Shown one piece after another: positions 4,057-64,000 of a stretch of DNA of 64,000 nt. Where the stretch lies: contig NC_058045.1 of NCBI RefSeq assembly GCF_020085105.1, positions 9,751,833-9,815,832 on the forward strand, written 5' to 3'. Made by a program: the position numbers and the translations under genes. Below the pieces are notes generated by a model, which saw nothing but the letters and a program-made list of their open reading frames with translations, was not told the origin of the DNA and did not search any database. Every line of letters starts with the position of its first letter. Positions within the stretch are counted from its first letter, which is position 1. The DNA is from Siniperca chuatsi. Lineage: Eukaryota; Chordata; Actinopteri; Centrarchiformes; Sinipercidae.

Positions 4057-4117
<61 letters not shown>

Positions 4118-39246: not shown

Positions 39247-42200
39247 TCAGATGTGGCCCATGGGGTTTGCTGGGTCTGTCAGACTGGGATGGAAAGAAAG
39301 ATGCATGGACTGTGGCTCTGTCATGACCACAGACGCCTTCTCTTCCTCTCTCCTCCGCAGACAGGCTGCCTTCGGGTTCAGATTCCTCTCTGTGGGATTC
39401 AACAAACAATGGGTTAGCGTTTGGCTAAATAAAGAAACTGAAGATGTGTGGTAGTACATGGATATTATTCATTTCTATCCTGTATGATGCAGATTCAGGT
39501 ATTTTAGTGCTGCAGAATCTGTTGGAAAATACCTCATGAATTCTGCTTTGAGTGTTAATTTTAGTGTATCATCAATTACTGTTACTGTGTCAAATTAAGC
39601 TGTCAGCCACAGTGTCTTTTTTAATACACAGACAAGAAGTCAGAAATGTCCAAATTCTGCTCATAGGGGCTTTAAAGCTGCTTTAATCAATATTTTTATA
39701 TTAACAATTTATAAAATGACTTCATGTAATGTAATGTAATGAACCCACCGGCAATTTTTTACCACACTCTCCAATTCCTCTCAGCTCTGTTTTAGCAACT
39801 TGTTGTTTTGATTTTAACTCAAATGATTTGGTTCACTCTCTCTGCTCTCATCAGTGTAGTTTTCAGCCGTAGCAACCAGCTGTTTTCGATGAAAAGGCTC
39901 TAAAAACCCACTGTACACGACCTGGCCAGCACCAAACAAATAAAGTTAGCAACTAGCTAGTGAACATAGTGGAGCATTTAGCAGCTAATAATATTTCCCT
40001 CAGGAGCTGGTGGACACTGAAACAGAGCTAAAAAGAGAGTGGACACAAATACGACGACAAATAAATGATAATGTTGCTCCAAGTGGTAAAAAAATTAATT
40101 AATGCAGGTTCAACTTCAGCAAAAAAATTAAAAATATATAAAATAAAAATGTAGGTAGGTAGATATGGTGTGAGATATTTTACTCTGGATAAACTGTGGC
40201 TAAAAACATGTTTAGAGTCTGTAACCAACTGGTGACTCCCAACCCCTAGTTGTAGGTTTCTTATTTTCACATTCTGCCTTTTATTTTCAGTATCTACTTA
40301 TTTGACTTAACAGAGATACAAGGCTCCATCTTTGCATCTCCCTCTGAGGTGGGACCATCAGAGAGGAGGACATACAGCCTGCAGCAGCGATGCACTGACC
40401 TCTGACTTGTTGTTCCAGGCTGAGGATCACTGCAACGGCCTGGTGCAGCACCAGCAGCTTGGTCTGCGGCTTCTCACTCTTCAGGTGCAGCTGACACATG
40501 TGACCCAGCTCCTTAAAGGCCTCGTTGATGTCCCGCACACGCAGACGTTCACGGGCGTTGTTGGCCATTCTCCTCTCACGCTCACGTTCGGCCTTCTGCT
40601 CCGGGCTCAGGTCCTCATCCTCATGGATACTACAACATCAACAAGGTATGAGAAAACGCTGGTAAGGATACAATTTATTGTGTGAATCTTTCAAAATGAC
40701 AGATTTATGCTTTTAAAACTGATATTCAAGCTTAAGTGGATCTAAGTGAAGGCTTCAGTGGCTAAGAGGACTGTGTTGAGTTATATTGTGGATTTCTCTG
40801 CCCTCTGCTGGTCACTGAGCTGACATGTTATTGAGTCTTCTGAGTTCATCTGATATACCCTCATTTGTTCTGTGAAAGGGGCTTACATAGTACATTGACA
40901 ACAAGCTCATGTGATCAGGCGCACATTTATAAATAATTCATCCATGAGAGCATTTATTTTAGAAAATCCCTACTCAGTCAATAACCACTGATAGTTAAGA
41001 GACGCACTTTCAGTCACATTTCAACAATTGTTTTCTTTTCAATTACTGTCTCATTCAGTTTTAATAAGAAACCAAAACAAAAAAAAGTCCAGTAGAAAAA
41101 TTGCCGCTGGAGGGTCATCCATATATATCAACATCGATATCCTTCAACTAGATTATAGATCTAAATAAAAAGAAACCACGCACTCAGGCAGCAGAGCTGA
41201 TGTCATGAAGAGGTTTGTCCTGAAGTGACCTCAGAAATTAGAGACACCAGGACAGACACTCAAGATGTACAGTCTGGTTTTAAATCACAGTCAGACACTG
41301 ACTTTATAAATCCACATTTTTCCAGTGGCTCATTTAATGCCAAAACCATGTTAATGAACCTAAAATACCACCCTTCATCATAAATGGTCAAGTCTGTTGT
41401 CAAAAAGCTGAAACAATTTGTTGGTTAACTGATAGTTAATCAACAGAAACTTAATCAGCAACTATTAAATGATAAATGATAATGATAAATGGCTAATCAT
41501 TTAATTAATTTATTGAGCAAAAAATGCCAAACACTCCTTATTTCCAGCTTCTAACATGTGACAATTCGCTGCTTTTCTCAGTTTCATATTTTTATAATTT
41601 GAATGTCTTTGGGTTTTGGACTGTTGGTCAGACAAAACAAGCAATATGTTGATATCACTCTGGCCTCTGGGAACTTGTAACAGGCATTTTTCTCTATTTT
41701 ATAGACTAAATGATGAATTGAGAAAAATAATCAGCAGATGAACTGATAATGAAAATAACTGTTTATTGCAGTCCTACAATAGTTACAATTTATACAAATG
41801 CAAACCTAGCCTAGCCTGTACTGTTGGCCCCCGTCACACCTTTCTATCATTGATGTCTTCACCATTTACTGTATGTCCTGGCAGCTCCTCTTTTTTCCTC
41901 ATTTAATTCACTGCAACCTAAGCCAACATGAAGAAGAAAAATGAGGAGGAGCTAAATAGGCTTGCCTGGACACAGCTGCCCTTCACAGCAGGGGGTCTGA
42001 CAGTAGTTTAAATTGGCAAGAAGGCTCTAATACTTGCCTGTGAGTGAGGAACTTTTATTTTGAAATCTGCTGTACTACTTTACAGTCACAAAATACATTA
42101 TGTTTCATCTCAATTAATTTTTTCCATTGCAGATTATTAATCATGCACACCACAAACATTTCAGCACAATGAGTCAGGAGTTTTTCTTCACTCAGCATCT

Positions 42201-45200
42201 GATTTTACACACCAAACTAGTTTTCTCTGACCAGGTGAATGATGTTTTATTTGTTTTTTACTCAGAGGAAAGCAGGAAAGTGGAACTGTTTACCTGTTTT
42301 CTCCTTGGGTTTTGTGTTCACTCTCCTCATCTGATCTCTGGCTGTCAGAGCTGTGGCTGTGATTGGTGTGCATCATCTCTTCCCTTTCCCCGCTTTCCAT
42401 CTTCATCTCCAGATTACCCTGAACTCCCAGACCGCCTGTGGAGATCACACATAATGAAAAAAAAAACATTTAAAACTGTGACAACTCTTAAGTCCTAACA
42501 GTTCAAAGGTTCAAAAGTGCAGATAAAGGAGGCGACATATATTAATGCAGCGGCGGATAAATGAGAGAAAGGACTCGCCTCTGCCTCCACCTTGCAAGGG
42601 CTGAAGCGTGGCCCTCTGTCTGGCTGAGTATGGGTGGCCATTTTGTGTGCGGCTCTGGAAGGCTGATTGGTTGTTGTTCATATTTACAGCTTCAGCCTTT
42701 ATGACACAAAAAGAATGGGATGAGATAAGGGCAATATTCATGTGTTCATAAGACAGTCAGGCTGGCTCAGCCGCATACAGGATACAACTCTTAGATCCAG
42801 CCAATGACAAGTAAGTCACAAACCCAACATCTGCCCCCTCATTTCCGGTATAACACTGGGTAGATTTCTCGCTCTACAGAATTAATTTAATCTCCGACAA
42901 TCTTAATCCTTCCCTTAAAACTACTATATATTCCCTAAACATACCACTAATTCTCTTCAGGAATGATTCACTTCAAACCAACACATCATTTGGAAAAAGT
43001 GAGAGAATTTAATACTCCCCTCCCCCAAAGGATTAGACTAAAAAACCCTGTCCCCTGCATATACTTCCACTCCAGCTGGGCCAAAATCCCCTGGTCTGCT
43101 GAAAGGGAAACATGCTGGTATGGGAGGGCACGATCAGGCCCCCATCACCCCATAGTGGAATTAGAGTCCGCACATACTGTACGCTCTCCATACAAGGGCG
43201 ACGTGTCACAGCGCTCTCGCATTGTGCTCAGTTTCCTATTTCAAGGACAACAACCTTTACATGAGGAAAATATGCAGACACAGCGGGTGGAAAATTCCTG
43301 AAACTGAATCCCAGCATACACACATACTGTACACACACAAGATGGAATTTCCATACACACTGCCCTGTCCTTCCTTAAATACTTCAAAGTAGTGGTTGTT
43401 AACCATGGCTGGAGTGTGACAGGTAAGCAGTAAAGTGCTGGCAGATCCCAGGTGGCCATGGTGGTTCTGGTTCAGCAGGCCGTGGATGTCGGTGGGCAGA
43501 CTGGCTGTGGGGCCCACAGCGTGGTTCCTCAGGACGTGGATCACATCGTCCAGTCTGTCCAGTCTGTCCTCCACCTGAGACTGCAAACACCAAGAGACAA
43601 AAAGTTAAAATTGTTAGTTAATTGTTAAAAGTTTTTTTTGTGGCATTTGGCAATCAGGACACTGTTTTTAATGTCATGAAAGTTAAATAAAGATGGGACA
43701 TTTTGTTTTAGATATTGCAAAACCAGCAGTTGTTTGTGTTCAGTTTTGACAAAAACAGCCACAATTCACAAAGTAACAAAAAAGGTCACAGTTTTTACTT
43801 GAAACCTTAAATGAATAGTTTGATACTTTGGGAAATAGGCTTATTCACTTTCTTGCTGAGAGTTAGCTGAAAAGTCTGACGTCTGTGCATTAAACATGAC
43901 GCTACAGCCAGCAGCCGGTTATCTTAACTTAGCAAAAAGACAGGAAACAGAGGGAAACAGCTAGCCTGGCTTCTTGGCAGGGTGCAGTGGCTTCCTGTTG
44001 TCTTGACATGATCTCGAGGCTGCCAGGTAACCAGTCTGGCACATAAATCCTGTAAAACTGCAACTTGTCATTTTTACACTTCCGTTTTTTGTACAGATTA
44101 AGCATGATATAGCATGTTAATTAGTGAGTTTTAGAGGTGCTGGTAGGCAGATTTTACATTTGGACAGAGCCAAGCTAGCTGTTTTCGCCCTGTTTCCAGT
44201 ATTTATGCTAAGCTAAGCTAACTGGCTGCTGGCTGTAGCTGTTTATTTACTGGACAGATGTCGGAATGATATCAGTCTTCTGAGCTAACTCTCGGCAAGA
44301 CAGCAAATAAGCATATTACCCAAAATATCAAACTATTCATTTAAGGTTCCTTCCAGTAAAAATCAGTCCACACACTTTATATACAGTGCAAGCTGTAAGT
44401 ATACGGTTTGCTTTTTTTCAGTTTTCCCTCATTTGTAGGCATTTGCAGTCTCTTCTGGATGTTTGTTGCAAAGCTACTCTGTTTGTTACCACTTCCTAAT
44501 CTATTTGTCTTTTTTAATATATTACGTTTTCTTCTTTATTATATTTGCTGCAATGCTCTCATGAGTTTCATCTATGATTTATTTATATAACCATCCATTC
44601 ATTAGCTCTATATGACACAATAAATAACCTAAACTTCAGGCATGTGATAACAAATGAGGTGTTTACCAATGATATAAGGGAAGACTCATAGTGTGGCGAG
44701 GTTGGTGCCTGGACTGAACTCCGGGGCCACACGTTGGTACCTGAGAAAACGAAAACAACCAAATTAGACCATGAAGGGGTTGGGAAAATATAAATAATAT
44801 TTCACTCTGGGCAGCACGTGTCACTCCAGTTTACCTGCAGGTTCAGCTGCGTTCGGCAGCGGGGATGGAGACCTCACCGGTGTGGATGAACTGGAGGGGA
44901 AGCTGCTGCTGGTGTGATCGGGGGAATAAATCTGGCAGCAGACAGGGAGGGGGGAGGAGGGCATGGATCATTTTAAAGGCACAACTTGTCATTTCTGCGT
45001 AAGGTTTTACAGCTGCTGCCACAGCCTTTGGAGCAGGCTCGTAACCTGGACTAAACTCATCAATTCTGGTCATTTTACTAGTCAGCAGCCAATAAAAAGT
45101 CCTGCAGCATGAGAGTAGCTCTTTGTTAATATGCACTAGTCTGTTACTGGCAGGGACCAACAACTATTTTCCTTTTGCATTATACCGCTGGGGCTCTCAG

Positions 45201-47838
45201 GGCTTGGTTTTATGCTCTGGTCTGACTGTTTGAACATAACAGGGCATAGATGAGCCGGTCTAATGGGATTAAGGTGGTGCATACTTACAGAGGCCAGAGC
45301 TTTGCCCAAGGTATCGCCTGTCTGTGACCCTCCTGATATGTTTCTCTGGCTTCCTGAGACTGGAAAAAAGAAAACATTGTAAAATATTACAATAAAGAGC
45401 AGACAAACCTGAGATGAAATACGCAGTTTAGATTATTTTGTCCATTTCCTGACCTATCGAATTCTCTGAGGTGTTGATTGATGGAGTGCGGGATGCTGTA
45501 TTGTTGCGGTGAAAAGTGGACATTGGTGGGAGACCCCTGTTCATATCAGCAGCCATCACTGAATGTGGAGAGTAGTCCTGAAAAGTAAGCAAACACACAT
45601 TTAATCCACAGGGGTTAAAAAGTGCTGTGTTGTCAACAACCAAGCTCCTGGAGGTAAATCTCACCAGGTGGTTGTGTGGTGGTTGCAGGTTGCTGTAGCT
45701 CCCCGGCTGTGTTTGGTGGGTTGGGGCTGCTCCCAGTGCACCTTCATAGCCCTGCTGGTTCAGACCATTTACAGCATTCCAGATGTCGGGCGAATTGGTC
45801 GTCCCCTCTAAAATGGATAACGATATGTTATAGCCTGCACTGGAGCAGCATCTCAAGCAGCCAGTAAAGTCATGAAGCTCTACAGCGGTCTATCTGGAAA
45901 CAATGAAGCCCTATCAATCAATCAAAGGCTGAACGATGTTAATTTGTATAACCAATGTGACTATCTTTATCTAAGCTTTGAGAATCATAGGAAATGCCCA
46001 GTTTTTAAAGGCTCTTAAAATTAGAGTAAACTCTAATTTCAATGTACTCTTAATTCTTTTTTTATGCCATTGTTTGAATAGTTCTTTCATCCCCAAGACT
46101 GAAATATCGCAACAAATATTGGATGGACTGCCATGACGTTTTGTACAGACATTCATAGTCAAGAACTATGAATGGAGGGATTGCAATGAAATTTGGTGCG
46201 CACATGCATGTCCCCCTAAGGATGAATTTTAATCACTTTGGTGATCCTCTGACTTTTTATCTATCATCAGGTCAAAATTTTAATTACTTTGGTTTATCAC
46301 CAAATACCTGCAAAACTAATGACATTCCCATCATCTGCAGCAGCATGCCAACACGCTAAACTAAGATGGTTCACATGGTAAACGTTATGCCTGCTACCAT
46401 CAGCATGTTAACATTGTCATTGTGAGTATGTTAACATGCTGATTTTAGCATTTTGATCAGAGCACCGCTGTGCCTAAATACATCCTCACAGAGCTGTTAG
46501 CATGGCTGTAGACTCTCAGTTTGTTTAATAGTATTTATTGTGGAATAAAGTTTTTGGTTGTTTTTATATATTGTTTTATTTTATGGGGATCTGTTTCTTC
46601 TGCTCTGCATTCAGCGTTGTTTGATTAGGATGGCAGCACTGCAATTCCCATGCTTTTATGGATGAATAAATTGAACCTTGAACATTCACTTAGAGAAGGC
46701 CAACACAGCTGACCTGAGTTCAGAACATTTTACTGTTGCCCATTTAGAAATCTAAGCATGCAAAGCAGATCATTGTTGTGCTCATGTAAGTAAGTTAGTT
46801 TGATTAAGCTTGAACTTTATGGCTGTTTTGGTGTCCCTGAAAACTCAGAGCATTTGTATGTGTCCTTACATGTAGGTGCCACCATATTAAAGGGATGACA
46901 GGTTTGAGTGAACACTGAACCAAAGCAAAATGTTCTTATTACAGTGACTGGCGATGAATAATTCATTTTGGATTGTTTGAGCTCACCAAAGAAGGTGCTT
47001 GCAAACACATTGCTGGGGGCCTTGGTGGATGGACGTAAAGATGGGTTGTGGTTGATGTCGTCATTAGTGGGAGACTGCCCATAAACCTAAAGAGAGGAGC
47101 TTGTTTAAGGCATTGTCGGAAAACAACTTTGAACCATAACATAATGTACACAAACAATGATTTTCAATGTGTCTGTATCACTCAAAACAATCTTACTGAC
47201 ACAAACATTTGAATACTGTGAGTGCGAGCTGAAGCAACAGTATTACGAAAACAAAGCAGAGAGCTGATGCACACTTAGAGCTATTGCGATAATCCATAAG
47301 CTGCAGATCCATGCACCTCCTCATCCGGATTTAGGGACCATTCACCATGAGAAATCCCTGCCCTAATCATGATCAGGTTGGGCTGGCTTCAGAAGACTGG
47401 GATACAATTCCCTTCCAAATAAAATTGAATTAGAGGCCTTCTCATACTTTTGTCCTCAAAAAGAAACCAAACACAGAACTGAGTCTCACTCTAATGTTCC
47501 CCTTCTGTAGGAAACAAAATACTGTAAATAGAAAACAGATCTAAGAATTAAACTAAAAATACCTTTGGCTAATGATTTTTTTTCTTTTAATTGTAAAGCA
47601 CAAGGCTAGAAACTGCACATATGCACACAAAACACACCAACACATGCTCACTCACTCAAACACACCAAGAGGTCTGGGCTGCACCTGCACCTCCCTCGAT
47701 TGCTTTGATGTGCCCCAGGAAATGAAAATAAACCTCCCTGCGCAGCATCAATGGGGTGTCAGTTACCCGGACGACAAGTTCTGTAAAGCAGGCTATTAAA
47801 GACTCTCTTGAGTATGCTCGTGCAGGCACACTCACAGG

Positions 47839-47879
<41 letters not shown>

Positions 47880-49556
47880 CCGTGACCCTGGCTGGCATGA
47901 GTCCCATGGTGATTGTGGGCTAGGCCAAACAGAGGAGCCCCTGCCGACACTGGGCCCGTCTGAGCCGCCATGGGCAGCATATGGCAGAGGATAAAGCCAA
48001 TTGTCCTCCTTACCATCAGCATAGCAGGCGACCCGTTAATAATGGTCACACCCCCACCCCAGCACGCCCTCTCTGGCCCCCACTGGAGAGGGGCCGTCAC
48101 CATGGCATCCTCTTTTAGCATAGCATTGATTTAGGAACCATCAATCATGGTATCACAAATGATACAGGACTTTTTTCAGCAAATAAAGACTACAGCTAAG
48201 AGAGAATTGAAATACTATAAAACCTTCATATTTGCTTGAAATAATCATTTTGAACACATGTCCTTTTTGGCAATCTATTAGTTGCATCTAAAGTTATTTT
48301 AAGCTGAAAATACATATAAACTTGTAAAAAAAAAACAAAAAAAAAACAGCTACACATGTTTTCCATTGTAAATACACATAGCATTATCATGCTAGATGAG
48401 TGAAATATCAACTTGCTATTCAGGGCCTATGCTGTGCTCCACCATGGCCAACTCCAGCCACATGCAACCAATTTTCTGCCTCTGTGATCCACGATGTCTG
48501 GATATGGTTAGTCTCACAGAGATCAAAGCTGCCTTTGATAATGGCTGCAGTGGTGGAGGGACTGCTCCAACATAGCAGGGTTAAATCAAATAGAAATAGC
48601 AGCAATCTGCTTCATGTCAAGATGTTTTCTGCTGCTAGGCTTGACTACATGGTGCTTGGCTAACAGGAAGCAAGAGTCTCACTGGTGCATTTTAACATGA
48701 GTTTGTCAAAATGAAACCACAAGTGAGTGAGGTGTTATAATGTTAGCTAACTGAATGCTGGCATTATTTTAGGGGCTGTGCATGCAGAGTTGTTATAAGT
48801 TGTGTGATTTGTGGGTAATCTTGATTTTTACTGTCAGAAAATTACATTTTCATGTGAACTTGGTTTAAATGCTGTTAATGGGGAACCAAATAGCCAAGTG
48901 ACAAATGGGGAACTCACTGAGATTTTTACCTTAAAATGTTATACAAACTCTTAGTTCTTGCATTAACTCAAGTTGCAAGTTGCAACTACTGAGGTTTAAA
49001 CAAGAATAAGCTTCATACCATGTACACAACTCTTCAAGGAAGTGACAATGACACATTCAGCATAAACTATAGACATGACCTTTCCAAAATACACATGCAA
49101 ACCAGCCAGATGAAACAACCTTATATTCCAACAAATGTTCTGTGCAGAGTAGGAAACATCCCCACCAACCCACAAAATGCCTCATAAAAGGTACATCCAA
49201 ATGACAAAATGTTAAATTACAACAGTCTTGTAACATTTATACAGGGTTGCACATGTGAATGCATTTCTTACTGATGCACAATTTTGGATAATGTCAATTA
49301 GAGAACACACTGTTCAACCACTGTTAACAGAAAACGCTGGAAGTGTTTCATTGTGTAAGTCAACAAACAAACAGAACATCTGAGAAGACAATTAAAGAGT
49401 ACAACAGCATCATCACCAAACACACTGACAGTGTCATGTATCGTCTGGAAAATAAAATAGATATATATATATAAGAAATATACTCACTGGTTTCATGTTG
49501 TAGCAATACATCAATGAGTTGTTGCCTGTGCCAGAGACAGGATGAGCACAGTACAT
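39247..49556 (-). CDS. tcf12: Transcription factor 12 (HEB), class I bHLH, short isoform
   Basis: E-protein that dimerises through its HLH and binds E-boxes (CANNTG), usually with tissue-specific bHLH partners. Twelve exons in phase: 49556-49488, 47086-46987, 45807-45665, 45577-45454, 45359-45289, 44931-44835, 44740-44667, 43580-43383, 42696-42591, 42435-42294, 40629-40400, 39389-39247. Product 498 residues; the human short isoform has about 512. The N-terminus [17 protein letters not shown] is the alternative-promoter type shared by TCF12 and TCF4 short isoforms. Then come FASTFFEGT, the second activation domain ([18 protein letters not shown]), [24 protein letters not shown], the bHLH (about 394-447) and the E-protein C-terminus [11 protein letters not shown]...[21 protein letters not shown] and the C-terminus identify TCF12 rather than TCF3 or TCF4. 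No exon for the long-isoform N-terminus, with activation domain 1, was recognised upstream. Confidence 0.95.
39665..40030. repeat. Dispersed fish repeat in the last tcf12 intron
   Basis: GGCTTTAAAGCTGCTTTAAT, then TTATAAAATGACTTCATGTA and GAACCCACCGGCAATTTTTT, blocks recognised from teleost dispersed repeats. Confidence 0.5.
40400..40629 (-). CDS. tcf12: tcf12 bHLH exon
   Basis: Encodes [20 protein letters not shown] (basic region and helix 1), the loop and helix 2. Basic-region residues that contact E-box DNA are intact. Residue 418 is His (codon 40502-40500) where mammalian E-proteins have Arg in ELGRM. The exon ends in phase 1 and joins the last exon to give VRERNLN. Confidence 0.95.
41395..41778. 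repeat. Dispersed repeat R2, copy 2
   Basis: Same ordered blocks as 930-1235, ending TTATTGCAGTCCT. It lies in a tcf12 intron. Confidence 0.7.
43804..44347. mobile_element. MITE family M1, copy 4, full length
   Basis: The best-preserved copy. Terminal inverted repeats of about 28 bases (left ACCTTAAATGAATAGTTTGA, right its inverse) differ at about one position. It is 544 bases long and carries an extra internal stretch (about 43970-44080) not in the other copies. It lies in a tcf12 intron. Confidence 0.85.
46080..46535. repeat. Dispersed fish repeat in a tcf12 intron
   Basis: Contains AACACGCTAAACTAAGATGG, CATCAGCATGTTAACATTGT and ACCGCTGTGCCTAAATACAT, blocks of a very abundant teleost repeat. 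Confidence 0.6.
47839..47878. repeat. (CA)n microsatellite
   Basis: About 19 CA units in the intron before the tcf12 alternative first exon. Confidence 0.95.
49488..49556 (-). CDS. tcf12: tcf12 alternative first coding exon
   Basis: Twenty-three codons, from ATG at 49556-49554 to a GTGAGT donor at 49487. They match the N-terminus of the known short HEB/TCF4-A-type isoforms (MYCA.P..G.GNNSLMY). An in-frame TGA seven codons upstream shows that translation must start here. The exon joins in phase 0 to VYGQSP at 47086. Confidence 0.9.
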
Positions 49557-49760
49557 AACTCTGTCTGCTTCAGTTCAAGACTCCAGGCTCACAATACAGT
49601 CCACACACAGCTCTTCTGTCCGTGTCACTACTCATGTGTATGTAGTCCACATGCACTCCTTCCCCTAACCTACCCCTGCTGGTCATGCAGCTACCCACAG
49701 ACAACTTATGCAAATAAGGGCTGGACCATTCCAGGAGGCAGAGAGGGGTGGCCAAGAGTT
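49557..49760 (-). promoter_or_regulatory. tcf12: Candidate tcf12 internal promoter with octamer site
   Basis: GC-richer sequence immediately upstream of the alternative first exon. It contains a perfect octamer (ATTTGCAT on the transcribed orientation, 49715-49708), about 150 bases before the ATG, and a TEAD-like GGAATG about 30 bases further up. Transcription start is inferred, not seen. Confidence 0.4.
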
Positions 49761-52552
49761 GATGCTATTACTGTAGTACAAGCCTGTTTTTTTTTTTTTA
49801 TTAGATAATATTCAGTTATAGAATAAACAGGCTGTAGGGTTTAGTGTTTTGTGTGTGCTGACTATTAAGGAGCCTGTTTATGTAAAATGGCATAATGAAA
49901 ATGACTGAAACTTGTAATAATCAGGGAATTCCCCACCCACGCATTGGCCAAACACCTTGACCACACCAGAGCAAAGAGAAGGGGGGAAAACGCCATCACC
50001 AGTGTGGGTTATAAACTTCGTTGTTCAGCTGTCATCGTATTCCTATGTCATCCTATGTTAGTGTAAAATCATATGCACGCAAGCTCAGAAATCCCTCCTT
50101 AGGACCAGCAAGGAGTGATGAGGCCATGAAGATTATCTCCTGTTAGACAGGTAGAGTTTTCCAGTAAACAGAGAATACCACACCCCTGTCTGACCCACAT
50201 TTACAAATAGAACAAAGTCTTAGTTTGTAGGCACGTGTGGCATGGCAAGCTCCTCCAGAGGCTGGGTTAAAGGTTATTTATACAGTAGTCTGTCTGGGTG
50301 ATCTGCTAAAAGTAAAACACCTAAACATTCAGACTTCCTGTGTGAGGTAAACTCCACTGTCTGCTGCCCTGGTGCTGAAATTGACAGTGACTTTCTGCAT
50401 GTGCAAATAAACTATTCAATAACAACAACAGTACAAGGAGCTGATCTGCTGTATTTTGTGCAGTATTCTCTGTATGTTACATAAATATGATTCACCAGAA
50501 AGGAAAAAACACTGCAGTTGGCGTGATGCTCAGACCTGCAGTGAGCCACACTGCCCTGGCATGGCATTTTGACCTAGAGAGACATCACGCGAATCCAATC
50601 AAATAATTCCCACTGAGACAGCAGCAAAGTCTTTAACTTAAACACATTGTCTTACTAACCCTCCAGTGTTTACATTGAAGCCAAAGGGGACTGTGTGTAA
50701 TGTGGCCAAACTAACAACACTTTGGTATCTTTCCGAAGTCTTTAACAAAGTGTATGCTGTGGTTTCCCTATTTTTGATTTTAAATGTACAGTTAGTGTAT
50801 TTTAAAAATAGTCAACGTATATTTGTAAAAAATATTTTTGAAAGTTTTTTGTATTTCAAGAAGCGATAGTGTTAAACAAGCTATCCATCCCTAAAAAAAA
50901 AGTTTGTTAAGCAACAGGACCGTAATACTGTGGGAAGAAACTGAACAAACTGATCGGAGAGCAGAAAAACAAAGTATTGTCCGCTGGTTTCAATCCGTCT
51001 GAAGGTGAGCTGTGTAGTCCGTGCAGCTTCTAATCCTGACTATTCACGCTAGTGTTAACTGGGTTAGGAGGTCAGTCGTTTTTCTTTAGGAATAGTGTCT
51101 GTCCTAAGATTACTTTTCTCTTTAAGTTATGATACAAGTTATAAAGAGGAAATGTTCTCAATGCAGGTGTCTTAAGCCAAAAATTAATAACTAAATTCAG
51201 GATTTTTACAAATAATCCAGGAACACCAGTGGCTACTGAATGACCTTTTCCTCTGACAGAGATCAGTTCTCCCATCTGACACACTAGGCATGAATAAAAC
51301 ACATACACACACACATCTTGGGTAAATGATCCAAGAGCAAATATATACAGTCCCCTAACCCTGAACTTTGCATCAATCTTAGTTAATTGCAGTCTTGTCA
51401 GGAGTGCGATTATTCAAACAGGTAATGCAAATGTTAATGAGTTCAAATTTGCATATCTTTATTTTCCCATGGTTGAAATGTCATTGGTTATGACGCTCTA
51501 CAATGAAGAATGTCACTCCTGATGGCCCCCTGATACGTTGTTGGCCATTAAGAGGCCAAAAAAAAAAAAGAGCAACTGAAGGGGATGGAGGAGAAATAAA
51601 TAAGGTGCCGTGCTCCAAATAATAGAAAGGAAATGAAGACTTTTATATTCAAACATAAAAACACACTCACGCCATCATTGCAGCCCTGTTATCAAATTCA
51701 ATTTTGGCAGAATATATTAGTAATGGACACAAAATCTGATTATATTCAGTAAAGGAAAAAAATTATATTGATGTATCCAACCAATAAGAACTAAAAAGAA
51801 AAACAAATACCCCTTTGTAGTTTGAAGTCATGGTTGTCCTTTTACTGTAAGATATGCTGTTGTGCATACTATGCCTGCAACACACATTTCAAGTGTTGTT
51901 GGCATATTGCTCATCGTCATGCGCCTGATTTGACATGGCTTAAATAACTATCTTCCTGCCAGTGATTGGCATTCACACAAGAAGGGGTGAGTGGGACTGG
52001 GGAGCAGATGGTGACATTCCACATGACCAAACTGATCAATCAGCATGCTGGGACGCAGGTGCAGCACAGGCGGGCAGCACCACACCATCTATTTCACCAT
52101 CTACGGGGCGCAAACACATGGGCACCAATCGTGGCACCCTGAGGGTCTGCATGCTCCTCTGTCCCGCTGTGCCAAGGTTGATGACATCAGAATTTCCCAT
52201 CCGCTCTTCCACAGGACGCCAAGAAAAAGGAGGAAAAAAAACACTGCATAAAATCTGCAATAACAGCCCGGCCTGGGATAGGTTGTGTAAGTGACGTCAA
52301 AGCCAGGGACTCCCATATTTCACCCTGGTACTAAACTGATAAACCAAAAGAAAAAGTGGACAAAAGTACCATCACATTTGGGCTTTAACAGTGTTATTTT
52401 TGGGATCTGCTAACAGTATTTGAGTAGTAAAATGACTAAAATGTCTTCCTTAGTGCAGGCACACCGTGGATACTTTTGCCTCTCACAGTGTCACAGGACA
52501 CCATTCTAATATTTAGCTTTTACAGAAACATGACAAAATGTTTGGTTACTTT

Positions 52553-52903
52553 TAGGGCTATAACTAACGATTATTTTTATTATTAATTTAAATTCGTTTT
52601 CAATTAATCAATTCATTGTTTTGTCCATAAAATATCAGGAAAAACTAAAAATGCCTATTATCATTTACCATAACCCAAGGTTATGTATTCAAATAGATTT
52701 TTTTGCCCAAAAAAACAACAAAAAATCCATCCAAAACACAAAGCTATTCAGTTTTCTATCATATATAATAAATACGCAGTCAATCCTCACAATTTAACAG
52801 CTGGAACCATCAAATGTTTAATTAATCTATTATCAAAATAGTTGCCAATTAATTTTCTGTTAATGAACTAATCAACTTATTGACTAATTGTTTTAGCTCT
52901 AGT
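52553..52903. repeat. Dispersed repeat R2, copy 3
   Basis: TTTAGGGCTATAACTAACGA at the left end and TAATTGTTTTAGCTCTAGTT at the right, the family's inverted ends. Confidence 0.7.
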
Positions 52904-54649
52904 TACTTTCCTAGCAATTTAAAATAATAATTTCTTGGATGTGCTCTTGAGTACTTAAATTAAAAGTAGTGCTGATTGAACTGACCAACCAATCCTGGTT
53001 TACCAATATTGTAAAAAAAAAAAAAAAAAAATGCTTAGCATTTTGTATTTTGTTTATGCCAATTCAGTTTATGCAGCAAATATCTGTAAATAATTTCCTT
53101 TAGAGGACATGTCAGTGAATGCATCTTAAAAGCAAACAGGCCTACTATACGCATACAGAGGTAAGCAGGTTGGCTGTGGTGTTTGATACCTGCTGGCGTG
53201 ACTCTGTACTGAGGATCTACTGTATCTGCGGGATAAGACCTGACAGCAGCAAGCTGATCTTACAGTCTGGCCTGGAAGAAGTGGGGGTTGTAAGAGGATT
53301 GGAGCAGCCATGGCTGCATGGTGCACGTGAGAGCCAGACTCACCGACCTCTCCACCACGATGACCTCGCTGTCCCACATTCACCATAACATGCAAGGAGA
53401 AGACGGGTGGCTTTAGGTCACAGCCAGTCTAATGTGTGACCTGCTCGATTTCCTGGGAATATGTCATGAAATCAAAACTCTGCAACAAACAAAATAAGTG
53501 GTGTTTGAGGGCAAGAAGTGCGTTTAAGTGTACCAAATGTACTATATATTTTAAGCTACAATATACAGCAAAAGGTACAGAATATTAGCTTTAATGGTTT
53601 TCTCTTGAAATAAAATGATCTGAAAAAATAAAACATTGTTGGGCTCTTCCTGATCATCCAGAGTGGATGGTCCTTGTCAACTTTGTCTTTATATATTTCT
53701 CATTATATTGATACATGTCTCCATATTTTAAGTATATTAAGTATTAGGGAGTGTTTTCCTTCAAATTAACCTGCATGTGTTTGGTAAATACTGCATGGCA
53801 TAATATGAAATATTTCCTCTAAAAAGTAATATTTTGTGTAGAATTTTAATAATCAAGCAATGTAAGCCCACACGTGACTCAGAACTAAGTAGGCTACATT
53901 GAGGAGGTATTGTAAATTGTTGCCATGGATTATATATGGCCACAAAAATGGCATCAACTTTGGGAGGAGTGTTGTGTACATTTTAACATTCGGAGGAATG
54001 AGCAAGGGCAAAGACTGCTGACATGAGATCTTCCAACCCAAATCAGAAGTGACAGGAGAGTGACAGTGAAATAAATCAGTCCAGAATAGCCAGCAACCGA
54101 AGGCCAAAAACAGAGTGAGAAAACAATGACTAACAAGGAAACAACATTTTCTTGAGATTTAGATGAAGTGTCACTGTTCCACACCTCCGGTGTTGTTAAC
54201 AAGCCAGCGAATGACAAGGTTTGATGGATGTGTGTGATACGTTATAGAAAGAAAGAGAAAGTGTCAAGAATATCTAAATGTTGAAGCAAAGATCTATTTC
54301 ATCAAATTACACCAGCAATAAACATGAGACATTTTGGCCACCTGATCATAATTAAAGCATTTGTCTGTTAAGTAAATGAGAAAATGTTTTACAACTTCAG
54401 AGACTGTTCCCAAAACAGTCAATAACATTGCAGTGTTTCACACACCACAACTAAATTAACAATATAATCCTACAGCTTTAGATCGTAGCTCTTCTGTTTT
54501 ACTCCAATTTATAGTTTTAATGTTTAAAAAAATAAAACAAAAGTTAAACAGGCCTAAGTAAATATTTACATTTCTACAAGTTCAGGGTAATTTTTATTGG
54601 GCTTTAGTATGATAAATTAATGTTTTATTTGAATGTCATACACCAGAGG

Positions 54650-55950
54650 GTGCGAAGCTCACCTACAAGACCCACAGAAGCACAGAAGCAAAAAAGGCAG
54701 AATAGAATATCAATCATATCATAGATAAGATATATGTAATATTTACGACCTGCTCTAATGCTGCTCCATGCCAACTTTATGCCTCACGTCGCATGGCTCC
54801 CTCCCTCATATGTCCACAAACTATGAGACTATTTTGTGTATTGTGCTCTCTAGGAAACAGCTCATAGCTCTGTTCTGCACGTCTCTCCTTATTTGCTTAC
54901 AATCCGCCCAAACCACTACAGCTTAGTCTATGATCAAACACAAGATTTATACAGTTGCTTATAGGTATCATAGCCGAAATTTTACATAATTTAACCTTTC
55001 GCAAAAAGGCAACCATTGATGTTCCAGGATCATTTTTCATACAATTTCTGGAAACAAAAAAGTAGTTTCAAATATTCAAAGCATTCAGTGTATGTTAAAG
55101 GTATTAAAACAAATATCAAATCAAATATGTTTCTTGTCATACACTTTCTTCTAAAACGTGTGACTGTTAGGAGTACGTTTATGACCACAATATTTAACAT
55201 ACTCCTCAGGTCTTTTCATGGCTCAGCTACAAGAACAATATCATCAGCATAGTGAGGAATAAATACCAACTGTGAGATTAGGGGTTCAAATTCTGTAAGC
55301 AACCATCAAATTTTCATCAGTGTATTTAAAATTTTACTTCATTTTAAGCACTCCCCCCTGAGTCACTCTAAAGGGCAATGTAGACAAACCTGTTCTATGA
55401 TCATTAACCTGTGGGCCTACACACACAACCTTTTCTTGATAAGGCAAAATGTTTTATATTCATACCAAACTGAAATCGTCTGAGAATGTCTTCATTCACG
55501 CTGTTAGAAGCTTTCTATAGATGCCATATCAGTTATCTACTAACAGGCCAGATGTTTACAAATAATGGGAAAGTCTATAGGAGCACATTTTATACACACC
55601 GCTTAAAAGACTCATTCCTTGAACTACACTCATAATAAATATGATGCAGATTGCATGTGATTAGAAAAAAACATGGTCACATAAGTAGCTTCACTAGTCA
55701 GGCTGTTCTTAACCTAGTGGCATTACCTTCCATATTAATGTGTCCTTAATTGAACACTTATCGCCAGAAAAGAAAGTACTTAAATCATATTCCAATTTTA
55801 GCAAATACAATAGACCCATTTTCCAACACAATTTTCAAGGAAATAATTAATTATTGGGGGACCCAATATATTTACCTCATTCCAAAATAAAGTTAATCTG
55901 CAAATGATTTGGATTACAAGCATTTTTTAAAAATATTTCTTGTGTCCACT
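54650..55950 (-). pseudogene. Decayed non-LTR retrotransposon (reverse transcriptase relic)
   Basis: On the minus strand, codons at about 55251-55222 read YADDIVLVAE, the reverse transcriptase catalytic motif (the D-D pair binds the metal ions), preceded by LVFIPH. Downstream reading (RSMLNIVV, then a FEYLK-like piece) resembles the region after the motif in LINE polymerases, but stops and frame breaks occur throughout. The clade cannot be told. The ends of the element are uncertain. Confidence 0.6.
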
Positions 55951-56743
55951 TATTTATATCATTACATTGTGTAAGGTCAAATTACTGACAATGCTTTAAA
56001 AATGTAAGGCTTTACCATTCATCCACTCAGACTGTAGTGGTGATAAAGAGAAGTGTTTGCCATCATAATATGTCAGTGAAACGTTAATATTGGCCAAAAT
56101 CTATGCTTCACAAAAACTGACAGAGCTATACAAAATATAAAGGCGGTTACAATATTTAATAACATTTGTCACTGCAGAGACTCCCACACTCACACACACT
56201 TAACATTGAGATTAGGTAGTCAACCAGTAGTCAACTATTTTTTGTATTCCTTGTTGTCTGACTTGGGCCTCTGACACTTCAGATCATGTCAAAGACATTA
56301 TCAAATTCAGTGCGCTGAAAAAAGGCTCAGTCACTGAACAAACTGAAAAGCAGTCACGTACTGTGCTAAGAGACACAAAATAAACACATGTACAAACAAA
56401 ACTGGAGCAGAGCAACGTCAAGTCCTGCAAACAAACAGAAACCAAGTAGCAACACTTTTATTATTCCCTCTTGTTCCTGTTATTCTTATCTTGAGAGGTA
56501 TAAAGTCATGCGAGTTACTGTATACTTGCACATACATGCCTTGCCCATGTGTGTCTGAGTCTATTGCTGTCTTGCATTATGTTTCATGACCATGGTGTCA
56601 GTGGAGCAGTGGAGTAACATTACCTGTTTCCATCAACAGATGGCAGCATAAAATAAGTCATGATGAAAGAATTTATTTAGGTCTTGTTTTTCTTGACTAG
56701 GTGGCTTTATTCCTTTTGAATTTTCACATTAATATTTTCATAA

Positions 56744-56746
<3 letters not shown>

Positions 56747-56779
<33 letters not shown>
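56747..56779. repeat. (AT)n microsatellite
   Basis: About 15 uninterrupted AT units. Confidence 0.95.
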
Positions 56780-56781
<2 letters not shown>

Positions 56782-57597
56782 ATTACGATTTTTTTGCAGG
56801 TTAAAAACAGTCATTAGAATCAAATTAACTGGACATGTGCTTAATACATGTCATTTTCAGCAGGTTTACTGATGTGACATAAGTGAACGTTATATTTATA
56901 TATTCTGGTACAGACAGTCTCGATACAGTTCATCCTCTCAGGTTATTTTTTTTCCGCCAGCTGTGTCTCAGATTTCAGCTGAAGGAAAAAATAGTAAACT
57001 GTGTGATGAGCAAAGACAAATCTTGGAACAATCTGTCTGTGAAGCCTTTTTGGTGTTTGGGCATTTCCTCAGCGAGAGTGTGATCAGATCAGATAAATCA
57101 TATACAGAAACATATTGGTAGATATCGAGATAAACACGCGCTGGTAAATGATCGGTTTACATGGTGAAGTGATATCATCCTGGCTGTTTACCCGTCATTG
57201 TCACTATCTGATCAAGCAGCTTCCTGCAGCAGCGCCCCTGCCGGCTGACAGCGGGGCTACAGCGCACAGGCCTGCGTCAAGTTCCGGGAGACACAATGAA
57301 ATCCCAGTCAGGATTTTAAAATTAAAACTCCGTTAAAATGACACGTACAAGTCTAGAAAAGAACAGGATAAGGATGTATTTATTTATCAACGAATTCTAA
57401 GTATTTGCCAGTTCATAGGAGTTGGGAATAAAGCAGGGTATGTTGGAGGAGAGTTGTGCAACATGTTTGACTCATTGTGTCTGCCCTCTCAGTTGTGGCA
57501 GGGAGAATCAAGTGGACCCTTGCCTTTTCATGTGTGACACCCCACCTTTGTGTCATTGCTCAGCGTACATGAAACGCAAGGAAACGCAAAATGAAAC

Positions 57598-57906
57598 GCA
57601 AGGATTTACTTTTTCAGTTAAGTGATTCATCCTTTTGTCTATAAAATGTCAGAAAATAGTAAAAAAAAAAAATGTGCATCATAGAGTCCAAGGTGACTTA
57701 TAAAAATGTTGTTTTGTCTAATCAACAGTCCAAAACCCAAAGGTATTCAGTTTACTAACACATATGACGAAGATAAGTTGAAACAAGATGAGATAAGATA
57801 ATTGCTTGAAAAAGTAACTGAATTAATTAATAGATTGACAAAATGCAAATTAATTAATTAATCAATCGACTAATCAACTACTCAACTAATTGTTTCAGCT
57901 CTACTT
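57598..57906. repeat. Dispersed repeat R2, copy 4
   Basis: TTTTGTCTATAAAATGTCAG and a right end CAACTAATTGTTTCAGCTCT. A short GAAACGCAAG tandem lies directly before it (57569-57602). Confidence 0.7.
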
Positions 57907-58162
57907 TGAAACAGTCATTGTTTGGGCATAATTTGAACATTTAGATTCTGAATTTAGTTCCTTATGGGCCTTAGTTCCTGGAACTATCTGGTTGAAAAGG
58001 GACAGTAGTCTGACGAGAGCATGAGGTTCGTGAAATAAACAGTGTTTGCTTGAAATGTCAACCAACAAAGCTAATGGAGCTAATCTCAAGTACTGTACAC
58101 ATTGAAATCTACAATAATCCATTATATTTCATAAATTTATTACATGTTTTGTATCAACTTAA

Positions 58163-58445
58163 GAGGGACTGCAACTAATGATTATTGTCATTGTCATTAA
58201 TCTATTATTAATTTTATTATTAATTAATTATTATTAATCGTTTAGTCTATAGAAAATAGTGAAAAATGTCCATGTTGTAGTTGCCTGTTTTATCTGACCA
58301 CCACTCAGTAACCCAAAGATTTTCAATTAAATATAATATCAGACAAAGAAAAGCTGCTTACAGTGGAGAAGATGGAGGGAGAGGAGATGGAATCAGTAAA
58401 TGATGATTGAAATTAAATAATTAATCAATTATCAAAATAGTTGCA
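58163..58445. repeat. Dispersed repeat R2, copy 5
   Basis: GGGACTGCAACTAATGATTA at the left end and ATCAAAATAGTTGCAG near the right end. Confidence 0.65.
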
Positions 58446-58484
58446 GATTGATTTAGTAACCAGTGTCTATATCTGTTAAACAAA

Positions 58485-58620
58485 ATGTAGGGGATAAAAA
58501 GTACATTTTCCTCCGAAATGTAGTCGAGGAGAAGAAAGTAGCATAAAATGGAAGAACTCAAGTAAAGTACAAGTACCTCAAAATTGTATATAAGTACATT
58601 GCTTGAGTAAAGCACTATAT
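58485..58620. repeat. Fragment of the CAGTGGTGG-family repeat
   Basis: ACTCAAGTAAAGTACAAGTA and TAAGTACATTGCTTGAGTAA blocks only. Confidence 0.5.
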
Positions 58621-59439
58621 ATATTACGTATATCAGGGGCACCAAACGCCCGGGTTCCCTGTGTGGCAATTAGTTTGAGGTAATTTGATTAATTTCAGAG
58701 TAAGAGTAGAAATTGAAATGTAGTATTCCAGCATAGAAAAACTTGCACAGAGTGGCAGGAATGGGGGGGGTCAGTAGGGAGCTCTTTTTTGCCACAGAGC
58801 CCCTAGGAGGTTTATCTGGACCTGGTGCACACCCTAAAACTGCAGTACTATGTACTATGTGTATTTCTTAAAGGTTAGATTCATAATTTTTCAGGTCTGT
58901 CTTACAATACTCACATGCCCATATGTACATGAAAACAGTTTTTGCTTTCTGTAATCCTTCCCCCTGTTCATACTGATCCTTGAAAGATCCCTTCCTGATG
59001 TGCTTCCACTGTACATTCTAGCGTTTATCTGAAGGTAATATGAGTCTTCTGTAGTCTGATTTAGACAAATCAAGTGGATATCTTCCAAAGTTAGTCTTTT
59101 TAGTACGAAATGCCCTCTTGTGTTAATTGTCCCCAAGGAAACACTGAGGGTATTCAAAAGGGTATTCTGCACTAAAAAGACACGCACTTGATTTGATTTA
59201 TTCAGACTCATTTAACTTCAGATAAACTTTGGAATATATTTTTGCACAGAACGAGGACTGTGCATTTGTCCCCCATTACTTCCACTGTAAGCATGTTAGG
59301 AAGGGATCTTTTAATGGCCAGTATGAACAGCAGAAATTACTACAGCAAGCAAAAACTCTTTGTATATACATCTGGGCATGTCAGTATTGTTTTAAGACAG
59401 ACTTGAAAAAAATATAAACCAATTCTCTAAACAAGTCAT

Positions 59440-59789
59440 ACTTTTATTTCGAAGGCGGACTCCCTCGCTACTTCCGGGCTCGTCTGCGCTACCTGCGTGT
59501 ACCTTGACGCAGGCAGCTCGTCTGTAGCTGCTGCTGGCTGCTGCAGGCGTGCTATTTGCGGCAGCGGAGAGAGATCCCTGCGAAATGCCTTTTGTATTCC
59601 CGGGTGGTTTTTTTGGTTTAATTTTGTGTTTTGCGAGGGTCAGATCACAGTGTTTGTAGCCATGCTCTGTGGTGGATTCAGCAGGCTGTCCTAGCTGACT
59701 GAGCCGCTCCAGCAGCGGTTGGTCCGGTGCAGTGCACAGCCGGGGATGAGGCCTACTTGTTAAAGCTCCCCCACCACCCCTCCATCGTG
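59440..59789 (+). promoter_or_regulatory. rfx7: rfx7 promoter and 5' UTR
   Basis: CpG-rich island in AT-rich surroundings, with an ETS-type site ACTTCCGG at 59470-59477 and no TATA box, a common arrangement for widely expressed genes. The transcription start must lie here because the first coding exon follows directly. The reading frame upstream of the ATG stays open for some distance but has no other in-frame ATG. Confidence 0.6.
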
Positions 59790-59917
59790 ATGGCTGATGA
59801 TCAACAACAACCTGGTCAGAAGCCTGCCTCGGGATTAGGCTCTCTTCCAGCGCTGGTGCCAGGACTCCAGGGGCCCGAGGCTAACGCGTTACAGTTCAAA
59901 ATAAAGAATTCAATTTG
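59790..59917 (+). CDS. rfx7: RFX7 first coding exon (partial gene)
   Basis: Winged-helix X-box-binding transcription factor; mammalian RFX7 acts in the p53 target network and in ciliogenesis. The exon encodes [10 protein letters not shown]...[23 protein letters not shown] and ends after two bases of a Cys codon at a GTAAGG donor (59918). This matches the RFX7 N-terminus as I know it: MA(E/D)(E/D)[12 protein letters not shown] and KIKNSIC. The ATG has G at -3 and +4. The DNA-binding domain exons are beyond the window. Position next to tcf12 agrees with human 15q21. Teleosts have rfx7 duplicates; the copy is not resolved. Confidence 0.88.
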
Positions 59918-60478
59918 GTAAGGATGGAAATGATCCTCAAGCAGCCACATTGTCCTTTTCGCTAGCCGTAGCCTCGTAATTAGCGTATCTAGCTTCTGGA
60001 GTGGCAGGTTGTCTGTGTGCTGCACAAAGCGGCAGAAAATAACACGAGTGCTCCCGAGCTAAGCGTACATGTTTGACCGAAACGCGACAGCAGCGAGGGA
60101 AGCGAGGCTGTCTGCTACCTGTTTGTGCGTTAATAACACGTTAACGTCGGGTTACTTCCAGCAGTAGTAGTTATAATCATTAGCATCGAGCCATAGGAGG
60201 CCATGTGATAGATGACACCAAATGCACCGGTGGTGCTGATGCTCAGGATGACAGGTGTCAAAGCTGCACAGAGACAGTCACACTGACTTAATGCTGTTAA
60301 TGGCAATAGAAGATAACGAGTTAGTTTTTACATGTGTAGTTTCTACTGTGGCTTTAGGATTTATTAATGTTCAATTATTTTAGTTTGATTTCCCATCACC
60401 AGGCAGTAAAATGTATTTAAAATCTAAATAATTTAAGATGTTATTATCGGTCTATCTCCTAACATGTGGCATACTGTA

Positions 60479-62245: not shown

Positions 62246-64000
62246 TATAGCATGATATCTGAGTAGATAGAGGTAACAAAAATGTCACGTTGTCTTGATT
62301 TCAATCACATTTTACAGAATGGTGATGCGGTGCACTTTTCAGCACATACGATTGTCTATCATAATTAAGAATATTTTAAAAACCATAGTAAAATATTACA
62401 ATGGTAGATGGAAAAATTCTAAATATCAATACATTGCTGGTCCCCACTGTGGCCTGACCGACTGTTCATATAAAGACTTATTCTGGTAATAGTTTCTTAT
62501 CATACTACACACCATACAAAAAAAAAAGCAACAGGAATAGGAAATATAAACAAACTTTGTTGAACTAATAAGAAAATCCTGCATGTCTCAATGTTATTTC
62601 AATCTGAGTCATATTTATTCACATTTCTGGCTTTTATTCTCTTTGTCATTGTAGCAAATCTGTACAATCAAAAGTGGACAGCATATTGGTGAGTATCCAT
62701 TACAGACAGTTTCATGTCCAAACAACAAGTCTTTGTTAACTAACACTCTACCACACCCCCTTATTATCAGAAAGACACATATAACTGTTAATTGATGGAT
62801 CATAAGAACAGGTGTGCAGTTTAGCTTTTGTTAACAAAGAATATGTAAATGTATGTTTCATGCTTAGAGCCCGATGAAGTTAGGCTTAGTTGTCCTACTA
62901 TATATGAATTACTCAGCTGAAACCAAAAAAAAATAGCTTACCTAATATTTACATCACAGCAATAGATACAAAAGGATTTTATGATAATAACATTAAAATA
63001 TGTACAATATTGAAGTTTTTTTTATCATAGTAACAGTAGTGTACATTATATTGGCCTGTAAATACACGTAGATCCATTATTTTGAAATATACAAAAGAAC
63101 AACTTTTTTTGGCATGTTCAAAAAATGTGACATCTTTATCTCTGCCACACATGTATATGTAAAAGCTATCTATTTATGCACATTTTGTTGTGGCTTTATC
63201 TGAGCTGAATTGTCCCACACCTTGTATTCTGTCTGTATTTTAATTTCAACAAGATTGTCTGGTGTTTGGCAGATTTCAGCAGGCAGGTTTAGTCCCTATG
63301 TATTGCTTTATAAAATATCCACCTCTTAGCTTTATATGCTTACACATTGACACTGGTGCACACAGCACATCAGACTGGGGCAAATAAATGTCTAAAAGAC
63401 CTCCTTTACACCTGATAATAATATGTGTCTCGCATCTGTATTGTGTCTAAATATGTGTTGTGAGGTAAATATCAGGAGCACCTTACTGTACAATAGCATA
63501 TGCATAGAATGTAAAGGTGAGGAGACAAAATATGAGGAAATCTTACAGTAATAATGTTTAGGATTGGGTGAAATGGATACAATCTTCTATCACCATACTG
63601 TATATGTAATTTTCTATCAAGATGTCTATGTGAATAATGATAATGATAATACATTTTGGGGAAATGTTATTGAACATTGGTTCTGTTTTGGGCTTATTTA
63701 GTGAATTAAATACCTGAAAAAATCAAAATACTTAATCATTTTCATGCAAAAATCCATCCTGTAAATTCAATATTACCATAAGCAATAGTGGACTAATGCA
63801 ACTAAAGAAAGGGACAGCTAACACGGTATAACTGCATGGCAAAATCTCTTGACAAATTTCTATTGTCCAACAATATATAGTCACATTGCCCAAACGATTT
63901 GACTTGATCCTTCTTAATTAAAAAAATGCTGCATTTTTCCTGCATTTACGGATGCAATTTTCAAAAAGGAATAAATGTGGGGATCAAACAAGTGTAGGAA

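What the first reader, a model, noticed from the sequence alone, without database searches (positions are those of the whole stretch)
39247..59460. tcf12 seems to survive only as its short, alternative-promoter form
The first coding exon found is the internal MYCA-type exon, with an in-frame stop upstream. Only 9.9 kb separates it from the rfx7 promoter. I recognised none of the long-isoform exons (activation domain 1, the [11 protein letters not shown]-type motif, the PSYDSS region). If real, this copy has lost AD1 and acts only as the short HEB/TCF4-A-like protein, a possible split of isoforms between duplicated genes.
Basis: partly seen in the sequence, partly recalled or inferred. Interest (0 to 1): 0.7.

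Follow-up and report, generated by a model that had tools for sequence, protein, structure and literature searches.

The report
Fish tcf12 copy, short form only
In this fish one of at least two copies of the gene-control gene tcf12 has lost the front half of the gene and can, by its structure, only make the short, alternative-start protein, while another copy on a different chromosome still has the long form, so two forms that mammals make from one gene have come apart.

Summary
Confirmed and extended. The window (contig C4) holds a minus-strand tcf12 of 12 coding exons, 49556-39247: 491 aa, 11 GT-AG introns, matching phases, no internal stop. It starts with a 23-codon Alt (MYCA) exon, the start of mammalian HEBAlt. 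No long-form exon (AD1 to NLS) was found in 49557-59700 with recalled human E proteins, or in 49557-64000 with this fish's own long-form exons.

A second tcf12, on C1 beside a second cgnl1, has the long-form exons including AD1. Three conserved noncoding elements lie in the same order and orientation in both copies. Two belong to long-form intron 5, so exons 6-8 are missing from a fully read 1.8 kb interval: a secondary, bounded loss.

The short copy looks constrained (dN 0.32, dS 1.65 against C1) but evolves faster (91 to 37 unique sites). Its Alt domain has YCY, not the YYY switch. Whether C1 lost the Alt exon is open: none in the readable 70% of the intron. Expression was not testable.

The parts
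49488..49556 (-). coding exon 1: Alt (MYCA) exon, 23 codons, start codon at 49556
   Evidence: in-frame TGA upstream; donor gtgagt; 17/23 identical to a recalled Alt domain
46987..47086 (-). coding exon 2 (homologue of mammalian exon 9, VYAPS)
45665..45807 (-). coding exon 3
45454..45577 (-). coding exon 4
45289..45359 (-). coding exon 5, first part of AD2 ([12 protein letters not shown]2 limits recalled)
44835..44931 (-). coding exon 6, further part of AD2 ([15 protein letters not shown]2 limits recalled)
44667..44740 (-). coding exon 7
43404..43580 (-). coding exon 8 ([10 protein letters not shown])
   Evidence: the C1 copy has the same donor context, ATG then gt
42591..42696 (-). coding exon 9, weakly conserved; placed by open frame, phase and splice sites
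   Evidence: only 18.9 bits to recalled E proteins
42294..42435 (-). coding exon 10
   Evidence: 28.9 bits
40400..40629 (-). coding exon 11: bHLH
   Evidence: (Pfam HLH 39.3 bits)
39247..39389 (-). coding exon 12 with stop (NPMGHI*)
51946..52216 (.). conserved noncoding element A; its homologue lies in long-form intron 5 of the C1 copy
   Evidence: 156 bits, 71%; reversed control at most 35.4; no second copy in the sequence tested
51353..51643 (.). conserved noncoding element B, also of long-form intron 5
   Evidence: 116 bits, 67%; no second copy in the sequence tested
47882..48147 (.). conserved noncoding element C, between Alt exon and exon 2 here, between exon 8 and the VYA exon in C1
   Evidence: 81 bits, 64%; no second copy in the sequence tested
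49557..51352 (-). interval where long-form exons 6, 7 and 8 (NLS) should lie; none found
   Evidence: bounded by element B and the Alt exon
59790..59915 (+). first coding exon of rfx7, head to head with tcf12 (end given is the last base of the tblastn match)

Best explanation
This is one of at least two tcf12 (HEB) copies of a fish, most likely left by the teleost whole-genome duplication. In this copy the 5' half of the gene (exons 2-8: AD1, first half of AD3, bipartite NLS and the canonical start) has been lost, so the internal promoter that once made only the alternative form is now the only coding start. It is predicted to make a 491-aa HEBAlt-like E protein: a 23-aa Alt domain, AD2 and a bHLH. 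Expected behaviour, from work on mammalian TCF4-A and HEBAlt: it binds E-boxes as a dimer, activates weakly because it has AD2 without AD1, and, lacking the NLS, enters the nucleus with bHLH partners. The C1 copy keeps AD1 and the NLS and makes the canonical form. Shown: gene structure, no long-form exon found, their loss between conserved anchors, the second full-length copy, signs of constraint with faster evolution. Inferred: expression, dimer behaviour, kind and age of the duplication.
For: Intact 12-exon frame with 11 GT-AG introns and phases that fit throughout. Neutral drift of codons 1-366 without indels left 15 of 400 runs stop-free at 80% identity and 0 of 400 at 65% and below. No long-form exon by two probe sets. 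Copy with AD1 on C1 next to a second cgnl1 in the same order and orientation. Elements A, B, C collinear and co-oriented in both copies. C4 against C1 over 456 codons: dN 0.32, dS 1.65. Alt exon of 23 codons spliced to the exon-9 homologue, as described for HEBAlt in PMC9385190 (passages). TCF4 isoforms without AD1 activate less, and those without exons 8-9 lack the NLS (PMC3137626, passages).
Against: No RNA evidence that the Alt exon is transcribed or that the frame is spliced as modelled; coding exon 9 rests on frame and phase more than on similarity (18.9 bits). The Alt domain has diverged (YCY for YYY), and H411 of the bHLH replaces an R that the C1 copy and three recalled human E proteins share. 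The protein before the bHLH exon is only 52% identical to recalled human TCF12, less than human TCF12 is to TCF4 (64%): a decaying or newly specialised gene would also look so. dS is near saturation, so the duplication is not dated. C4's own share of the divergence is not known; at 80% identity some neutral runs still kept an open frame. The labels rfx7, adam10, aqp9 and cgnl1 rest on recalled sequences or recognition.
Confidence: 0.83

Rival explanations
1. A stronger version of the same reading: the C1 copy has lost the Alt exon, so the two copies are a dedicated HEBCan gene and a dedicated HEBAlt gene, the two halves of one ancestral gene.
For: No Alt exon in the readable 11769 of 16769 nt of the C1 intron: best 13.9 bits, while 40 Markov resamples average 17.4 and reach 21.6; best in all 80 kb of C1 then held 18.1 bits. 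The readable 3663 nt upstream of element C in C1 is 2.7 times the distance (1341 nt) at which the Alt exon sits in the window copy. An Alt exon planted in the readable stretch nearest the VYA exon was seen in 39 of 40 trials at 50% identity and 26 of 40 at 40%.
Against: About 5 kb of that intron reads N, and C1 introns are longer than those of the window copy, so the exon could be there.
Confidence: 0.55
2. One-sided loss: the C1 copy still makes both forms, and the window copy is a truncated, weaker duplicate kept for dosage or tissue-specific expression.
For: Faster evolution of the window copy on 91 against 37 lineage-unique sites, chi-square 22.8; part of the C1 intron is unread.
Against: No Alt exon in the readable part of C1.
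Confidence: 0.35
3. The window copy is a pseudogene in the making.
For: Lost exons; no match here to the ankyrin-like exon that C1 keeps; fast evolution; altered Alt motif and bHLH residue.
Against: No stop or frameshift in 491 codons, splice sites kept; neutral drift simulation; bHLH stretch 67/69 and AD2 helix 15/16 identical to recalled human TCF12; dN well below dS.
Confidence: 0.1
4. The long-form exons exist but lie outside the window or were lost in assembly.
For: By the exon lengths, C1 exon 4 ends in phase 0, so displaced exons 2-4 (with AD1) could in principle splice in frame to exon 2 here.
Against: The window has no N; elements A and B, which belong between exons 5 and 6, lie only 1.8 kb from the Alt exon with no exon 6-8 between. 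Exons 2-5 beyond rfx7 would need a rearrangement around rfx7; exon 5 ends in phase 1 by the same lengths and could not join exon 2 here in frame.
Confidence: 0.04

Closest known systems
HEBAlt, the alternative-promoter product of mammalian Tcf12 (PMC9385190: passages and one section read; PMC3346973: passages read)
   Same: Starts with a 23-aa Alt domain; lacks AD1 and the first half of AD3; keeps AD2 and the bHLH.
   Different: In mammals it comes from the same gene as the long form; here no long form can be seen to come from this gene. The YYY of the Alt domain, through which JAK activity raises HEBAlt activity in mammals, is YCY here (the last tyrosine, the one seen phosphorylated in E2-2Alt, is kept).
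TCF4-A / E2-2Alt (PMC3137626: passages read)
   Same: No AD1, no NLS of exons 8-9, AD2 and bHLH kept; MYCA start (recalled); localisation follows the dimer partner.
   Different: Paralogous gene; an isoform, not a separate gene.
Teleost mitf duplicates, isoforms split by degeneration of alternative exons (Altschmied et al. 2002; title seen in the reference list of PMC5306129; paper not held; content recalled)
   Same: Two fish copies, each degenerate in different alternative exons.
   Different: There both losses are established (recalled); here the loss is shown for one copy and open for the other.

Membership tests
TCF12 (HEB) class I bHLH gene | E-protein bHLH and C-terminus | tested here: met
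   67/69 over the bHLH and following residues to recalled human TCF12
TCF12 (HEB) class I bHLH gene | closer to TCF12 than to TCF4 | tested here: met
   before the bHLH exon 173/331 to TCF12, 143/327 to TCF4 (recalled human sequences)
TCF12 (HEB) class I bHLH gene | neighbourhood with CGNL1 and RFX7 | tested here: met
   rfx7 by tblastn of a recalled sequence; cgnl1 recognised from memory, a second copy found beside the C1 tcf12; human gene order recalled
HEBAlt-type product | 23-codon Alt exon spliced in phase to the exon-9 homologue | tested here: met
   gene model; definition from PMC9385190 passages; splicing itself not observed
HEBAlt-type product | no AD1, AD2 present | tested here: met
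   no AD1 found; AD2 helix 15/16
[quoted passage not shown]
   Y17-C18-Y19
HEBAlt-type product | transcription from a promoter at the Alt exon | not testable with these tools
   no RNA data
Isoform split between duplicates (subfunctionalisation by loss of alternative exons) | two copies from one block duplication | tested here: met
   C1 copy with cgnl1 beside it and three collinear conserved elements; that it was the teleost whole-genome duplication is inferred
Isoform split between duplicates (subfunctionalisation by loss of alternative exons) | copy 1 lost the long form | tested here: met
Isoform split between duplicates (subfunctionalisation by loss of alternative exons) | copy 2 lost the short form | tested here: inconclusive
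   none in the readable 11769 of 16769 nt
Isoform split between duplicates (subfunctionalisation by loss of alternative exons) | ancestor made both forms | not tested

The most novel reading that the evidence does not exclude
A complete division of labour: this fish has one gene that is only HEBCan and one that is only HEBAlt, and freedom from the shared reading frame has let the HEBAlt gene change its tyrosine switch (YYY to YCY) and its bHLH helix 1, so that it is becoming a separate E protein with its own enhancers kept from long-form intron 5.
Probability: 0.45. Interest if true: 0.65.

Novelty: new variant of a known kind. Interest (0 to 1): 0.5.

Why it matters
In mammals HEBAlt and HEBCan come from one locus, which makes their separate roles hard to test. 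A fish with one gene for the short form and another for the long form offers two clean knockouts. It is also a concrete case of isoform loss after duplication, with conserved noncoding anchors that show which exons went, and with intronic elements kept after the exons around them were lost.

Tried and rejected
Rejected: exons hidden by divergence. In planted-exon trials (20 per exon and identity level, approximate exon borders) the product of the miss rates over seven exons was 0.00029 at 45% identity and 0 at 55% or more. Rejected: dispersed repeats as the source of elements A-C. Other matches between the two copies (near 52553, 57633, 52730, 58169, 58297) were repeats or repeat-like and were set aside; elements A-C had no further copy in the sequence tested (about 245 kb by recount; the '252 kb' printed by the script and noted is a slip). 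Weaker matches of 44 bits and less (one is a CA repeat) were also set aside. Rejected: another gene between tcf12 and rfx7; 20 stop-to-stop frames of 73 aa or more gave no Pfam match above its cut-off (three weak ones below it). Rfam gave nothing at gathering level. Literature: in the listings no title or start of abstract names a short-form-only tcf12 or a second fish tcf12; apart from the papers named here only listings were seen, and most subscription papers are not held.

Not done: genome-wide AD1, Alt and element-A searches (not answered, see below), so the number of tcf12 genes is 'at least two' and tcf4 was not located. Of 131 HLH matches I fetched the surroundings of three places, chosen by match length and score (C1, C6, C13). 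Mended for this final text: odds of the 'outside the window' rival raised from 0.03 to 0.04, because exon 4 of C1 ends in phase 0; the drift simulation is now given with its weaker 80% row.
Full report
What was claimed.

The gene in the window. On the minus strand 12 coding exons can be joined from 49556 to 39247: 491 codons before the stop, 11 introns all GT-AG, phases all fitting. The first exon codes [23 protein letters not shown], 23 codons, with an in-frame TGA upstream. Pfam finds HLH; the best solved relative is full-length E2A, aligned from residue 30 to the end. Identity to recalled human TCF12 is 52% before the bHLH exon and 80% over the last two exons. The AD2 helix is 15/16 and the bHLH stretch 67/69 identical. 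Coding exon 9 is the weakest part (18.9 bits) and rests on frame, phase and splice sites.

The long form is absent. Recalled N-termini of TCF12, TCF4 and TCF3 (the typed AD1 matches PDB chains 8ubk and 2mh0 of E2A) reach 19.2 bits in 49557-59700; 30 shuffles average 19.9 and reach 25.4; the best in the whole window is 24.3 bits. Eleven of the 12 exons that are present exceed 25.4. In planting trials the product of miss rates over the seven exons was 0.00029 at 45% identity and 0 at 55% or more. Of the 500-base windows with GC above 0.45 and CpG ratio above 0.6, those nearest the gene are at rfx7, 59251-60250; around 56751-57500 the ratio is also raised, at lower GC.

A second tcf12. The genome search answered once: the window is C4:9751833-9815832 of a 718.8 Mb genome. 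Among the 131 HLH matches listed I chose three places to fetch by length and score. C1 holds a second tcf12 on the minus strand from 18291822 to 18209208. It has [48 protein letters not shown], the PSYESSR exon, exons 5 and 7 and the KKVRKVPPGLPSS exon, each with splice sites, and exon 6 by similarity only (27.3 bits, borders not placed); then the VYAPS exon, AD2, the ankyrin-like exon for which the window copy shows no match, and the bHLH. Downstream lies a second cgnl1 in the same order and orientation as in the window (name recalled). The fetched places on C6 and C13 are tcf3-type genes. tcf4 was not located, and further tcf12 copies cannot be excluded.

The loss is secondary and bounded. 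Aligning 47087-59700 with C1 gives three matches far above the reversed control (156, 116 and 81 bits against 35.4) that are not repeated in the other sequence tested. All three are in the same order and orientation in both copies. Elements A and B (51946-52216 and 51353-51643) correspond to C1 18262978-18262045, between exon 5 (18274137-18274035) and exon 6 (about 18255291). Element C (47882-48147) corresponds to a place between exon 8 and the VYA exon. Gaps of one, two and four bases in the alignment of A and B speak against coding. So the window copy once had long-form intron 5, and exons 6-8 that should follow it are gone from a fully read interval of 1.8 kb; in C1 the distance from element B to exon 8 is 10.3 kb. 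With C1's own exons as probes nothing in 49557-64000 exceeds 16.5 bits, against 16.2-18.9 in the reversed sequence. By the exon lengths, exon 5 of C1 ends in phase 1 and could not join exon 2 here in frame; exon 4 ends in phase 0 and could, so exons 2-4 beyond the window are excluded only by position and gene order.

Is it alive? Between the copies dN is 0.32 and dS 1.65 over 456 codons; dS is near saturation, as expected of an old duplication. In simulated neutral drift of the 366 codons before the bHLH exon, without indels, 15 of 400 runs stayed free of stops at 80% identity and 0 of 400 at 65% or less; how much of the divergence belongs to this copy is not known exactly. The window copy is faster: 91 changes unique to it against 37 unique to C1 with recalled TCF12 as outgroup (chi-square 22.8), 74 to 32 with TCF4, 54 to 25 with TCF3. 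So it looks constrained, but less so, or differently.

The Alt domain. In mammals the Alt domain carries a YYY motif; EEE raised reporter activity about ten-fold and FFF lowered it about two-fold, and the last tyrosine was seen phosphorylated in E2-2Alt (PMC9385190, passages and section 22). Here the motif is Y17-C18-Y19. The last tyrosine is kept; the response to JAK signalling may be reduced or changed. The six differences from my recalled Alt peptide should be read with care: one paper has the HEB and E2-2 Alt domains differ by two residues, another calls them 80% identical (PMC3346973, passages). H411 replaces an arginine that C1 and the recalled human E proteins share.

Expected function. 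TCF4 isoforms without full AD1 activate an E-box reporter less; those without exons 8-9 lack the NLS and are carried by their dimer partner (PMC3137626, passages). The same is inferred here. Expression is not shown.

The other half of the split. In the C1 intron between exon 8 and the VYA exon, 11769 of 16769 nt can be read and hold no Alt exon (best 13.9 bits; 40 resamples reach 21.6). The 3663 nt readable upstream of element C is 2.7 times the spacing in the window copy. The rest reads N. I hold the full reciprocal split at about even odds.

Known or new. HEBAlt is described; isoform splits after fish genome duplication are a known kind (mitf; title seen, content recalled). A tcf12 locus reduced to the Alt form was not named in the listings. 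I rate it a new variant of a known kind. It may be widespread among teleosts; no other fish genome could be searched.

Noticed in passing
G000:C6:20420720-20421238 (L016) and G000:C13:17577147-17579719 (L025): The two tcf3-type genes differ: C13 has two bHLH exons (one E12-like, one E47-like by eye against chain 2ypa), C6 shows only an E12-like one, followed after about 120 nt by the last exon. Possibly a second isoform loss between E-protein duplicates.
   Followed up: partly
51353-52216 and the C1 homologue: Element B keeps an octamer ATGCAAAT in both copies, and element A keeps E-boxes CACCTG and CATCTG: candidate enhancers.
   Followed up: no
1-38000: adam10 (+, 555-12050), aqp9 (-, 22731-18521) and cgnl1 (-, recognised) keep human order (recalled), but recalled ALDH1A2, which lies between AQP9 and CGNL1 in human, has no match in the window at E 0.05: a thinned duplicate block.
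   Followed up: partly
61328-61880: Sleeping Beauty/Tc1-type transposase remnant downstream of the first rfx7 exon (Pfam HTH_SB in 61328-61720).
   Followed up: no
58904-59011 and 59283-59390: Inverted repeat, 108-nt arms, 80% complementary, 271 nt apart, at the edge of the rfx7 CpG-rich stretch; perhaps a transposon.
   Followed up: no
G000:C1:18302731-18303249 (L030:7732-8250): THAP-domain reading frame upstream of the C1 tcf12, followed by frames that I recognise from memory as ZNF280D-like (no Pfam match).
   Followed up: no
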